NCBI GenBank assembly: GCA_024276995.1
Contig: JAJRWB010000080.1
Coordinates: forward strand, 90,800 to 154,799
Direction: 5' to 3'
DNA: 64,000 nt
Source of the DNA: Candidatus Eiseniibacteriota bacterium
Lineage (GTDB): Bacteria; Orphanbacterota; Orphanbacteria; Orphanbacterales; Orphanbacteraceae
In this document: one piece after another, positions 26,452 to 30,359 of the stretch
Position numbering within the stretch: position 1 is the stretch's first letter
How the letters are laid out: each line of letters opens with the position of its first letter
Notes under the pieces: model-generated
Databases searched by the model: none
The model's input: the letters and a program-made list of their open reading frames with translations, nothing else
Told to the model about the DNA's origin: nothing
Made by a program: the position numbers and the translations under genes

Positions 26452-28347
26452 CTACGCCGCCGACCGCGCCTTGCGCGCCAGGAACCAGGTGACCGCCGCG
26501 AAGAAGAGGATCGACACGAGGGAGGAGTCGAGCAGCCGGATCGGCAGTTGAACCTTGAAGAAAATGAGTGTCGCCAGGATCACACCGGTGATCGCCTCGC
26601 CCGCCACCAAGCCGGACGATACGAGGACGCCCCTGTTCTGGGCGCGTTCCGCCTCGTCGACGCCGGTGCGCCGTCGCACGGCGCGGCCGACGAGAAGACT
26701 CAGTAGCCCGCCCACCAAGATCGGCACCGAAAGCGACAGGGGGAGATAGATTCCCACCGCCACCGGCATGACGTGCGCACGGAACGATGAGCCCCGGGCG
26801 AGAAGCGCCCGGTCGATGATGATGATGGCGATTCCGGTGAGCGCCCCGGCGAGGATCATCCCCCACGGGAGCGTGCCTCCCTGGAAGAGGGTCTGTGTGA
26901 GGCTTGCGAAGAGTGTCGCTTGGGGGGCGCGGAGTTGATCGCCGATGCCGTACGCGCTGTGGAGCACGATCAGGATCGGGGCGATGATGAACGCCGGTAC
27001 CACGACGCCGAGCACCTGCGCCCACTGTTGCTTCACCGGCGTCGCTCCCACGAGATAGCCCGTTTTCAGATCCTGGGAGACGTCGCCCGCCGTGCATGCC
27101 GCGCAGCAGACCACGCCGGCGATGCCGAGCACCGAGACGATCCCCGTGAGGCCGCTGGCGCCCAGGAGAAGGAGAAGCCCGGAGGCGAAAAGCACCGTGC
27201 AGATCGTCATCCCTGAAACCGGGTTGTTGCTGCTCCCCACGAGGCCGACGATATAGCTCGACACGGCGACGAAGAAGAATCCGGCCACCGTCATGATCAG
27301 TCCCGCCACGATGCCGACCCACGCGGTATGGGCGAGGTGAATGTAGAGTCCGAAAATGAAGGGAAGAAGAAGAAGGAGGAAGATGCCGAGCTGCTTCATC
27401 GGCATATCTCTATCGGTGCGTGGCACTTCGTCGCCTTTGCGGCCGCGTCTCCCGCCGAACCCCCCGGCAAGACCCTTGCGGATCCCGTGCCGCACGCTCC
27501 AGATCGACCAGAGACCACCGACCACCATGGCGCCCACCCCCATGAATCGGATCTGTTCGTTCCAGATCCCCTCGGCGAAGGCGACGTAATCGGTCACGTC
27601 GCCCATCCCGGTGACGGCGACATACCAGGGTATGGCGACGAGCCAAGCGATCGCCCCGCCGAGGGTGATGAGGATCGCCACGTTCGGCCCGACGATGAAG
27701 CCGACCCCGAGGAGGGCGGGGGAGAGATCGCTTCCGAAGTAGAGCACCGTGTTGCCGGCCCGCGCCGCCCACGCGACCGTCCCCTTGATCAGGGCGATTC
27801 CGCCGACGAGTACCTTGAAGACGACGCCGACTCCCATCGCCTGGAACACCGTGGCAAGCCCGGTGCCCCCCTCCTCGCCCGCCTCGAGAACTTCGGCGCA
27901 TGCCCGCCCTTCAGGGTAGATCAGCTCCTTCTCCTCGATGATCAACGCCCGCCGGAGGGGAATCATGAAAAGGACGCCGAGGGTGCCGCCGAGGGCGCCG
28001 ATCAACGTGACCGGCCAGTAGTGGAAGTTGTGCCACGCCTTCGTCAGCACGAGCGCCGGCACGGTGAAGATAATCCCCGCCGCCACCGATTCACCCGCAG
28101 AAGCGATCGTTTGAACGATATTATTCTCCAGAATAGTTCCACGGCGGAGGATTCCCCTGAGAATACCCATGGAGATCACCGCCGCAGGAATAGAAGCGGA
28201 AACGGTCATTCCGGCGTACAGCCCGAGATACGTGTTCGCGGCGGTCATCACCAGGCCGATGATCAGGCCGAGGCCGACGGCGATGACGGTGGTTTCGGCG
28301 GGGCTCTTCGTCGCCGGCACGAACGACCGGCCGGGGGATTGGCTCAT
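26452..28347 (-). CDS. OPT-family transporter
   Basis: A protein of 631 residues with about 15 hydrophobic segments. Family hallmarks of the prokaryotic OPT branch: an N-terminal TYLGLYAGMTVSASIPAAV block, NNIVQTIASAGESVAAG, IYPEGRACAEVLEAGEEGG, a cytoplasmic linker rich in charge (GRRGRKGDEVPRTDRDMPMK), and CCAACTAGDVSQDLKTGYLVGATP in the C-half. OPT proteins import oligopeptides or metal chelates. ATG 28347 overlaps the DUF3179 gene by 4 bp, so it is coupled to the putative selenoprotein. Confidence 0.88.
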   Translation of the reverse strand: MSQSPGRSFVPATKSPAETTVIAVGLGLIIGLVMTAANTYLGLYAGMTVSASIPAAVISMGILRGILRRGTILENNIVQTIASAGESVAAGIIFTVPALVLTKAWHNFHYWPVTLIGALGGTLGVLFMIPLRRALIIEEKELIYPEGRACAEVLEAGEEGGTGLATVFQAMGVGVVFKVLVGGIALIKGTVAWAARAGNTVLYFGSDLSPALLGVGFIVGPNVAILITLGGAIAWLVAIPWYVAVTGMGDVTDYVAFAEGIWNEQIRFMGVGAMVVGGLWSIWSVRHGIRKGLAGGFGGRRGRKGDEVPRTDRDMPMKQLGIFLLLLLPFIFGLYIHLAHTAWVGIVAGLIMTVAGFFFVAVSSYIVGLVGSSNNPVSGMTICTVLFASGLLLLLGASGLTGIVSVLGIAGVVCCAACTAGDVSQDLKTGYLVGATPVKQQWAQVLGVVVPAFIIAPILIVLHSAYGIGDQLRAPQATLFASLTQTLFQGGTLPWGMILAGALTGIAIIIIDRALLARGSSFRAHVMPVAVGIYLPLSLSVPILVGGLLSLLVGRAVRRRTGVDEAERAQNRGVLVSSGLVAGEAITGVILATLIFFKVQLPIRLLDSSLVSILFFAAVTWFLARKARSAA

Positions 28348-29381
28348 TTTTCCCTTGCGCTCCACAGGTCGGTTTGAGGAAAGAAGCTGCTCCAGGCGAA
28401 CCAGAACGCCTGGGTGGCCGGTATTTCCCTAAGCCGCCCTCCGGCCGATTCCCCGCGGCTCACGTTCCAGAGCGCCCCCGTCCGGTCATCCTTCATGCGC
28501 AGCACGCCGTCATCGACCGAAGGTTCGAAGCGGAGAACGTTGCCCTGGAAGGTTCGATCATACACGAAAGCGGTCTTTTCCGTCGCGATCCAGGCGACCA
28601 CCACCGGCACGCCCCCCACCTCGGTGTTGACCACAGGATGATCGTCGAGGGCGCCGGCGGGAAACGCCGCCTTTCCCGCTCCGATCCGGACACCGACGAC
28701 GAGATCTTTCCCGCCGAGCCTCGAGTCGGCGTTCTTCCGGCCGAAAATGCCGTTCATCGAATCGTCGGTGAAGTACCTCTCGTATGCCGACCCCTCCTCG
28801 CGTCCCCCGTCCTTCAGCAGGACCTTCGTATCGGGCCACGCCTTCTTCCACTCCCGCCACGTGGTCTGCACGCTCGGGAAAACGATGAGCTTCTCTCCTT
28901 CGCGATCACCGGAGATGCACTCGCCGAGCACATGGCTCCACAGCGAGCGACTCTCCCGATCGAACATGATGAGCGAATCTTTCCAGAGTTTTCCTGAAAC
29001 GCCGAAGGTAAGCACGGTGCCCTTCCGCTTCCGCTCATACACGATGGCGGTGTAGCACAAAGGTCACCAAGTCGCGGCGATCGCCGTTCCCCCGAGCACG
29101 TCGTTGACGATCTCATGCCGGTCGAGGTGCCAGGTGGAGTACGCTTTCGCTTCACCGCCCGCGTGGACGCCGATCACCATTTCATCGGGCCGGAGAAAAC
29201 TGTCCGCCTCGGAGGCGGTCACGAAGACGGGGTTGTCGATGGCGGGGATGGCGTCGAAGTCGAGCACGGTGTACATCGGATCACCACGGACGAACACCGT
29301 GTCGCGGACCCCCTCGGCGCGGGGTGCGCCGTGCGGAACAGGTAAGAGAAGAAGGAGGAAAGCGGCTGCGGTTTTCTTCAT
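28344..29381 (-). CDS. DUF3179-family secreted protein, probable selenoprotein (UGA at the first Cys of CPLC)
   Basis: The 345-codon gene starts at ATG 29381 with a signal peptide (KKTAAAFLLLLLPVPHGAPRAEG). It carries the conserved blocks DPMYTVLDFDAIPAIDNP, HEIVNDVLGG and TAIAATW, then TGA at 29066-29064 (codon 106), then PLCYTAIVYERK in the same frame, followed by the normal DUF3179 remainder (SLWSHVLGECISG, FGRKNADSRLGGKD) to a TGA at 28346-28344. Family members usually read TWCPLC here (established knowledge), so UGA replaces the first Cys of a CxxC and would give UxxC, a typical selenoprotein redox motif. A hairpin follows the UGA. A nonsense mutation of TGC or TGT cannot be excluded. 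It is the third gene of the ECF-sigma operon. Confidence 0.78.
29033..29056 (-). promoter_or_regulatory. candidate SECIS-like hairpin downstream of UGA
   Basis: Reading the minus strand from the UGA, 9 nt separate it from TACAC, a 7-nt loop CGCCATC, and GTGTA (29054-29050 pairing with 29042-29038). An outer GC/GC pair closes it with a 3-nt bulge. The loop starts about 15 nt after UGA with a G at its second position, close to the geometry of bacterial SECIS elements. The stem is short (5 bp), so this is suggestive only. Confidence 0.4.
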
Positions 29382-29385
29382 ACGG

Positions 29386-29640
29386 TCAGCCCTTTCCCTT
29401 TCCGCCGCCGCAGATCCGGTCGACGATTCGCTTCTCCATCCCTTCGGGAACGGGCGTATTCTCACGTTCGGCGGCGGCTTGCTCCCGGGCGAGCCGGCCG
29501 ATGAGGCCGATCTGCTTCAGTAAGCGACGGCAGTTCGAGCACATCATCAGGTGGAGCCGGAGGAAGAGCTTTCCGAAGAACCCGGTCGTCTCCATCGATC
29601 CGTCGGAGATCATTTTCGCCGTATCACGACACGACAGCAT
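29386..29640 (-). CDS. zinc-finger (zf-HC2-like) anti-sigma factor
   Basis: An 84-residue soluble protein. MLSCRDTAKMISDGS at the start and LRLHLMMCSNCRRLLKQI further on give the C...HxxxCxxC zinc-binding pattern of small anti-sigma factors that often partner with ECF sigma factors. No membrane segment, so it acts in the cytoplasm. It begins 3 nt after the sigma factor stop. The zinc thiols could sense redox state, which would link to the selenoprotein next in the operon (inference). Confidence 0.8.
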   Translation of the reverse strand: MLSCRDTAKMISDGSMETTGFFGKLFLRLHLMMCSNCRRLLKQIGLIGRLAREQAAAERENTPVPEGMEKRIVDRICGGGKGKG

Positions 29641-29643
29641 CGC

Positions 29644-30225
29644 TCACCCTCTCTCCACTCCCTTCGATTCGAGGCACTCGCGCAATCCGTTTCGCGCGCG
29701 GTAGAGGAGCACGCCGAGATTCGTTCCCGTGACGTCGAGAATCTCGCAGATCTCCATCGTGGGAAACCCCTCCACTTCCTTGAGAACGAAAGCGTTTTTC
29801 TGCTTTTCGGACAGCCCTTCGAGACATTCGCCGATCATGGCGCGAAGCTCGCCGTCGTTGAAGATCTCCTCGACATCCCTCGGCGGGCGGATCCAGTGAC
29901 CGTTCGAATCGAAGCGCGACTCGATCACGTCGTCGATCGAATCGTGGGCCTCGCTCTTCTTCCGCTTCCGTCTCGATTCGGCGATCTTGTTGTAAAGAAT
30001 ACCGAAGAGCCACGTCCGGATGTGGGATCTCCCCTCGAACCGGGCGATATTCTGGACGAACGCGGTGAGCGTCTCTTGGACCGCCTCTTCGGCCTCGTCT
30101 TCCCGGAGTCCCGCCCCGAGGGCGGCGCGAAAGATCTGCTTCCCGTAGGCGTGCACCACGGCAGTGAGTGCTTCTGGGTCCTTCTTCCTTACACGGTCGA
30201 GAAAATCGGGGTCTGAAAAGTTCAA
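29644..30225 (-). CDS. ECF-type sigma-70 family RNA polymerase sigma factor
   Basis: A 193-residue protein with sigma2 (ALTAVVHAYGKQIFRAAL, EAVQETLTAFVQNIARFEGRS, IRTWLFGILYNKIAESRRKRKK) and sigma4 (LEGLSEKQKNAFVLKEVEGFPTMEICEILDV, LGVLLYRARNGLRECLE) regions. Start TTG 30225 is chosen for the GGGGGCGGC just upstream and because it gives the usual ECF length; longer starts up to 30351 would intrude on the divergent promoter region. It probably drives its own operon. Confidence 0.85.
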   Translation of the reverse strand: MNFSDPDFLDRVRKKDPEALTAVVHAYGKQIFRAALGAGLREDEAEEAVQETLTAFVQNIARFEGRSHIRTWLFGILYNKIAESRRKRKKSEAHDSIDDVIESRFDSNGHWIRPPRDVEEIFNDGELRAMIGECLEGLSEKQKNAFVLKEVEGFPTMEICEILDVTGTNLGVLLYRARNGLRECLESKGVERG

Positions 30226-30274
30226 GCCGCCCCCTTCACCCGGATGGCCGAGCGGGTTCCATCGAAACGGAGAA

Positions 30275-30303
30275 AGCGTACCAGCTTCGCCTGTGGGTGG
30301 CAA
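30275..30303 (-). promoter_or_regulatory. candidate promoter of the ECF-sigma operon
   Basis: On the minus strand TTGCCA (30303-30298, 5/6 to -35) is followed after exactly 17 bp by TACGCT (30280-30275, 3/6 to -10). An ECF-type autoregulated promoter might instead lie in the same 134-bp divergent gap but cannot be recognised without a known consensus. Confidence 0.25.
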
Positions 30304-30359
30304 CAGCGCCTCCCATATTTCAGGTGCGCCGGGCGGTGAGGGCTTGTACACTTCGCCTC

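What the first reader, a model, noticed from the sequence alone, without database searches (positions are those of the whole stretch)
28344..29381. Probable selenoprotein: DUF3179 with UGA at the first Cys of its CPLC motif
Seen: an in-frame TGA (29066-29064) between TAIAATW and PLCYTAIVY, with all flanking DUF3179 blocks intact on both sides, and a hairpin about 10 nt downstream with a G at loop position 2. Known: the family normally has Cys there, and bacterial Sec usually replaces the Cys of a redox CxxC. Inference: the protein is made as UxxC. I know of no described DUF3179 selenoprotein. Three other in-frame stops in this window are TAA/TAG at unremarkable positions, so UGA at exactly this codon is unlikely to be chance.
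Basis: partly seen in the sequence, partly recalled or inferred. Interest (0 to 1): 0.87.

Follow-up and report, generated by a model that had tools for sequence, protein, structure and literature searches.

The report
DUF3179 selenoprotein gene, known family
This gene encodes an exported protein whose internal "stop" codon is very probably read as the rare amino acid selenocysteine; the evidence is strong, but selenocysteine-containing members of this protein family are already on published lists, so it is a new example of a known kind.

Summary
The minus-strand gene 29381-28344 encodes a full DUF3179 protein (PF11376, E 4e-84) whose only internal stop is TGA at 29066-29064, the first position of the family's CPLC motif. 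Reading it as selenocysteine is well supported. (1) The genome has SelB, tRNA-Sec(UCA), SelD, SelA and two further standard Sec genes; SelA, though, reads in two frames, as if one base were missing. (2) In the 80 nearest public homologues the column is TGA in 66, Cys in 14. (3) A bacterial-type SECIS hairpin follows at fixed register: 97% paired in 63 distinct Sec sequences, with compensatory changes, 38% in Cys ones, and stabler than synonymous recoding predicts. Locally it sits in an ECF sigma / anti-sigma / DUF3179 / OPT-transporter cluster shared with a same-family relative. New here: confident models show two similar all-beta domains whose best structural matches are Rieske-fold proteins, without Rieske cluster ligands. 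Function is unproven; an exported selenol/thiol redox role is most likely.

The parts
28344..29381 (-). DUF3179 selenoprotein gene (345 residues if UGA106 is read as Sec; signal-peptide-like N terminus MKKTAAAFLLLLLPVPHGAPRAEG)
   Evidence: PF11376 E 4.1e-84 across the TGA; translation; the signal peptide is judged by eye
29064..29066 (-). In-frame TGA, Sec codon 106 of the UPLC motif
   Evidence: TGA at the same column in 66 of 80 relatives
29031..29050 (-). SECIS upper hairpin: 7-bp stem (positions 17-23 with 29-31 and 33-36, A32 bulged) and loop CGUGU at 29043-29039
   Evidence: fits the bacterial SECIS model quoted in PMC13188914
29386..29640 (-). 84-aa zinc-finger-type anti-sigma factor (motif HLMMCSNC); NF052368 antisigmaE E 1.4e-12, 47.2 bits, slightly under its cut-off of 50
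   Evidence: counterpart in L063
29644..30351 (-). ECF-type sigma-70 factor (the true start is probably near residue 42 of this ORF, where conservation begins)
   Evidence: PF04542 and PF08281, TIGR02937 over its cut-off; 78% identical in L063
26452..28347 (-). OPT-family oligopeptide transporter; its ATG overlaps the DUF3179 stop (ATGA)
   Evidence: PF03169 E 2.6e-100; 77% identical in L063; overlap read

Best explanation
The gene is a genuine bacterial selenoprotein gene of the DUF3179 (PF11376) family. SelB with Sec-tRNA(Sec) binds the hairpin just downstream of UGA106 and inserts selenocysteine, giving a full-length protein with a U-P-L-C motif where Cys homologues have C-P-L-C. The N terminus looks like a signal peptide, so the protein probably acts outside the cytoplasm. 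The Sec is probably the reactive residue of a selenol/thiol redox reaction, with Cys109 as partner, on a tandem of two all-beta, Rieske-like domains and not on a thioredoxin fold. Shown here by computation: the reading frame, the Sec machinery, the SECIS covariation, the Cys/Sec alternation and the domain duplication. Inferred: actual Sec insertion, export and redox function; the Rieske-like fold assignment is probable. Co-expression with the ECF sigma factor, anti-sigma factor and OPT transporter is inferred from gene order only.
For: PF11376 match spans the TGA. SelA, SelB full length over the TIGR00475 cut-off, tRNA-Sec with TCA anticodon at 71.2 bits and SelD with its own in-frame TGA are in the genome, and a peroxiredoxin carries the known TxxU motif. 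Column U in 66 and C in 14 of the 80 nearest loci, Sec forms in ten named phyla, 4 label changes on the tree against 13.1 for shuffled labels. SECIS: 97.1% of pairs form at fixed register in Sec sequences, 37.8% in Cys ones, 25-46% when slid; synonymous-recoding z for the apical region -2.06 versus 0.01, p 2e-7. In the first survey 11 genomes have TGA at the motif: nine carry intact SelA, one is this genome, one is an 82%-complete assembly. Sec is kept where the second Cys is T, A, V, Q or E, which points to the first position as the reactive one. Models with pLDDT 92-93.
Against: The assembled SelA carries an apparent one-base frameshift: taken literally, the organism could not make Sec. An assembly error is more likely, since SelB, SelD(Sec), tRNA-Sec and the TGA genes are intact, but that is not shown. 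The window's own hairpin departs from the family register by a bulged A32 and scores modestly against synonymous recoding (z -1.7). No protein-level evidence and no assay exist. A redox role rests on the motif alone.
Confidence: 0.93

Rival explanations
1. Pseudogene: the TGA is a nonsense mutation that truncates the protein at residue 105.
For: The gene has a stop. The genome's SelA is frameshifted as assembled. Decayed DUF3179 copies with TAA/TAG do occur elsewhere (G011, G051).
Against: TGA at the same codon in 66 of 80 homologues over ten named phyla; no other lesion and the same GC3 after the TGA; SECIS covariation. Of 103 single-base routes to a stop in this gene only 24 give TGA.
Confidence: 0.04
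2. UGA is read as something else (a reassigned code, UGA=Trp or Gly, or plain readthrough).
For: None found.
Against: The gene itself ends in TGA, the homologous residue is Cys and not Trp or Gly, and Sec machinery with a tRNA-Sec is present.
Confidence: 0.01
3. Sequencing error: the true codon is TGC or TGT.
For: A single-base difference; the assembly is in 81 contigs and SelA shows an apparent indel.
Against: Relatives of the same family (G004/L063, 57-60% identical; G005, 55%) have the TGA too, and the hairpin after it belongs to Sec versions, not Cys versions.
Confidence: 0.02

Closest known systems
DUF3179 domain-containing selenoprotein (PF11376, UxxC/T), listed in PMC9312934 and PMC13188914, credited to Zhang & Gladyshev 2007 (Olavius algarvensis deltaproteobacterial symbiont)
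   Same: Same family and same UxxC motif.
   Different: A different, unnamed bacterial lineage; linked locally to an ECF sigma / anti-sigma pair and an OPT transporter. The 2007 paper itself was not readable here, so its sequences were not compared.
Cys-form DUF3179 proteins (haloarchaea, Nitrosopumilaceae, Chloroflexota, Gemmatimonadota and others)
   Same: Same family by sequence, about 30-45% identity, CPLC at the site.
   Different: TGC/TGT in place of TGA, and no SECIS hairpin at the register.
Bacterial SECIS elements
   Same: Loop of 5 nt with G at position 2 followed by U, upper stem of 7 bp, 20 nt between UGA and the loop: inside the published limits.
   Different: The window's copy has a bulged A in the 3' arm.
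Rieske-fold proteins (NirD-type nitrite reductase small subunit, Rieske ferredoxins)
   Same: All of the 50 best re-aligned structures, for the whole model and for the first half alone, are Rieske-fold chains (best Z 9.0 for the second half, 7.8 for the first).
   Different: No CxH...CxxH cluster motif, no sequence-profile match, and Z in the range where a common arrangement can score; NirD likewise has the fold without a cluster (own knowledge).

Membership tests
DUF3179 (PF11376) | Match over the curated cut-off along the whole profile | tested here: met
   282.9 bits against a cut-off of 27, profile 2-292/292
DUF3179 (PF11376) | CPLC-type motif in the N-terminal half | tested here: met
   UPLC at residues 106-109
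Bacterial selenoprotein | In-frame UGA aligned with a Cys of homologues | tested here: met
   66 U and 14 C in 80 loci
Bacterial selenoprotein | bSECIS: 3-9 nt loop, 4-16 bp upper stem, G in the first two loop positions, 16-37 nt spacing | tested here: met
   model from PMC13188914
Bacterial selenoprotein | SelB, tRNA-Sec and SelD in the genome | tested here: met
Bacterial selenoprotein | Intact SelA in the genome | tested here: inconclusive
   SelA homology covers the whole profile but in two frames; intact in relatives G001-G004
Bacterial selenoprotein | Sec shown in the protein | not testable with these tools
   needs mass spectrometry or 75Se labelling
Rieske [2Fe-2S] protein | CxH ... CxxH cluster-binding motif | tested here: not met
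   the only Cys/Sec residues of the protein are 106, 109 and 155; no CxH or CxxH in the translation
Rieske fold | Structural match to solved Rieske domains | tested here: inconclusive
   Z 9.0 (93 residues, 3.3 A) and 7.8 (93 residues, 3.2 A) for the two halves, all top rows Rieske-fold; Foldseek E 5.7e-3 at best for the whole and 0.13 for the first half; hhalign probability under 6%
Thioredoxin-like redox protein | Thioredoxin fold around the CxxC/UxxC | tested here: inconclusive
   the confident model is nearly all beta with the motif just after a beta strand, and no thioredoxin-fold chain was among the rows shown; the list is not exhaustive

The most novel reading that the evidence does not exclude
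DUF3179 proteins are tandem Rieske-fold domains that have no iron-sulfur ligands and carry a Sec/Cys pair in a hairpin turn of the first domain: a redox selenoprotein on a Rieske-like scaffold, exported, and in this lineage controlled by its own ECF sigma / anti-sigma pair.
Probability: 0.35. Interest if true: 0.45.

Novelty: new member of a known kind. Interest (0 to 1): 0.27.

Why it matters
Standard pipelines truncate this gene at residue 105, so it is a clear case for annotation. It adds to a selenoprotein family of unknown function that is widespread in uncultured lineages (ten named phyla in a sample of 80 loci), and it gives two leads on function: a probable tandem Rieske-like fold and one candidate regulatory context. 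It does not open a new kind of biology.

Tried and rejected
A single-protein scan of genome contigs found nothing and the broad alignment was too diverse to search with; the narrower alignment A2 worked. Viral contigs gave one relative, not pursued. Sequence searches of solved structures gave only chance hits to hemoglobins and the like. Two alignment attempts failed on ranges with stops. I first thought that UPLC sits where Rieske proteins have CPxH, with His89 in the place of the CxH histidine, so that Sec would be at a cluster-ligand position. The aligned ranges (model 76-178 against residues 4-99 of ferredoxin 1vck) put UPLC before the first cluster loop, and hhalign against 31 Rieske domains gave no support, so I dropped it. 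Ranges give ends only, so the exact register remains untested. The Zhang & Gladyshev 2007 paper is not held. tRNA-Sec family hits below the cut-off are presumably other tRNAs and were ignored. The sigma / anti-sigma / OPT cluster was sought in the fetched loci: it holds as a whole only for the same-family relative L063/G004; G005 keeps the sigma factor, and its short contig ends soon after DUF3179.

Full report
Observation. The minus-strand frame 29381-28344 is open from ATG to a terminal TGA with a single internal stop, TGA at 29066-29064, codon 106. The read-through product matches PF11376 (DUF3179) along the whole profile, on both sides of the TGA, E 4.1e-84. GC at third positions is the same before and after it.

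Sec machinery. The assembly that holds the window (G000, 3.76 Mb, 96% complete) has SelB, 640 aa, over the TIGR00475 cut-off; tRNA-Sec with TCA anticodon, 71.2 bits against a gathering score of 47; SelD, which carries its own in-frame TGA in the motif KAGUAAK; and SelA. A peroxiredoxin in the genome also has an in-frame TGA, in DFTPTU, the known TxxU form. The one blemish is SelA: its homology covers the full profile but in two frames, with one base apparently missing near a short C run. SelA is intact in same-family relatives G001-G004. I take this as probably an assembly error; it cannot be proved here.

Homologues. In a first survey of 193 genomes, DUF3179 copies occur in 28. TGA stands at the motif in 11 genomes (UPLC, UPVC, UPLT, UPLV, UPLQ, UPLE) and Cys or another residue in the others that could be read. 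Of the 11, nine have intact SelA, one is this genome and one (G005) is an 82%-complete assembly. Cys-form genomes have SelA in part only. Among 80 loci from public genomes, 66 have U (64 UPLC, 2 UPLA) and 14 have CPLC. On a tree the labels need 4 changes against 13.1 for shuffled labels; Sec forms come from Chloroflexota, Poribacteria, Nitrospinota, Tectimicrobiota, Krumholzibacteriota, Rokuibacteriota, Verrucomicrobiota, Planctomycetota, Fidelibacterota and Bacillota. The nearest, L063 (57-60% identical depending on the range aligned, same taxonomic family as this genome), is UPLC too.

SECIS. With the U of UGA as position 1, a stem 17-23 / 29-35 with loop 24-28 forms in 97.1% of cells over 63 distinct Sec sequences, with several compensatory pair types (21-31 as U-A, C-G, A-U, G-U; 20-32 as C-G, G-C). 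In 14 Cys sequences it is 37.8%; slid registers give 25-46%. Against synonymous recoding that keeps the protein, the apical region is stabler than expected in Sec genes (mean z -2.06) and not in Cys genes (0.01), Mann-Whitney p 2e-7. The sequences are related, so the p value overstates independence, but the contrast is plain. The loop is CGUGU in 50 of 67 Sec sequences. The window's hairpin keeps the loop and the upper three pairs, and forms the lower four with a one-base shift past a bulged A32. It meets the published model: loop 3-9 nt, upper stem 4-16 bp, G in the first two loop positions, 16-37 nt spacing.

Context. Upstream on the same strand are an ECF sigma factor (29644-30351) and an 84-aa anti-sigma factor with an H-x3-C-x2-C motif (29386-29640); downstream an OPT transporter whose ATG overlaps the DUF3179 stop. 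The same order is found in L063, with 78% identity for sigma and 77% for OPT. G005 keeps the sigma factor upstream. More distant Sec relatives do not share the cluster. Co-transcription and regulation are inferences.

Fold and function. The protein has a signal-peptide-like N terminus (by eye). The two halves are homologous: 31% identity and E 1e-36 as profiles; only the first keeps the Cys/Sec motif. AlphaFold models of the whole (pLDDT 92.1, pTM 0.89) and of the first half (93.3, 0.89) are nearly all beta. For both, all 50 rows shown by the structural aligner are Rieske-fold proteins: NirD-type 3c0d at Z 9.0 over 93 residues for the second half, ferredoxin 2qpz at Z 7.8 over 93 residues for the first. 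Foldseek alone is weaker (best E 5.7e-3 and 0.13), and sequence profiles give no link. I rate a tandem Rieske-like fold probable, about two in three. The cluster motif CxH...CxxH is absent, so it is not a Rieske iron-sulfur protein. Invariant residues in the alignment include His89, Glu90, Asn93, Asp94 and Sec/Cys106-Pro-Leu. The second Cys may be T, A, V, Q or E while Sec is kept, so the first position is the likely reactive one. A redox role is the usual inference for UxxC proteins; it is not shown.

Known or new. DUF3179 (pfam11376, UxxC/T) is in the selenoprotein tables of PMC9312934 and PMC13188914. The 2022 review credits Zhang & Gladyshev 2007, the Olavius algarvensis symbiont paper, which is not held here. 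NCBI records use 'DUF3179 domain-containing (seleno)protein'. Only three held papers mention DUF3179 at all, and none of the ten that hold both 'Rieske' and 'selenoprotein' looks, by title and abstract start, to be about such a protein. The finding is therefore correct but not new in kind; the fold suggestion is, as far as the held papers go, not described.

Noticed in passing
L004 (G000:C12:30000-46000), about G000:C12:39050: SelA of the window's own genome is split between two frames by an apparent one-base deletion near a short C run; either an assembly error or a recent loss.
   Followed up: partly
L014 (G000:C49:5158-6081): SelD of the same genome is itself a selenoprotein (KAGUAAK).
   Followed up: yes
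L145:347-724 (G000:C64:50246-50623): AhpC/TSA peroxiredoxin with in-frame TGA in DFTPTU, the known TxxU form.
   Followed up: yes
L048:4229-4819 (G000:C14): Second DUF3179 paralogue in the genome with Asn-Pro-Leu-Ser at the motif, 33% identical; G001 has SPLT and G156 SALT, so a Cys-less branch of the family exists.
   Followed up: partly
window:28344-29381: DUF3179 is an internal duplication of a Rieske-like domain; the second half has lost the Cys/Sec motif.
   Followed up: partly
window:25404-26186: A sulfotransferase-like ORF (PF13469, just over its cut-off) lies downstream of the OPT gene on the same strand.
   Followed up: no
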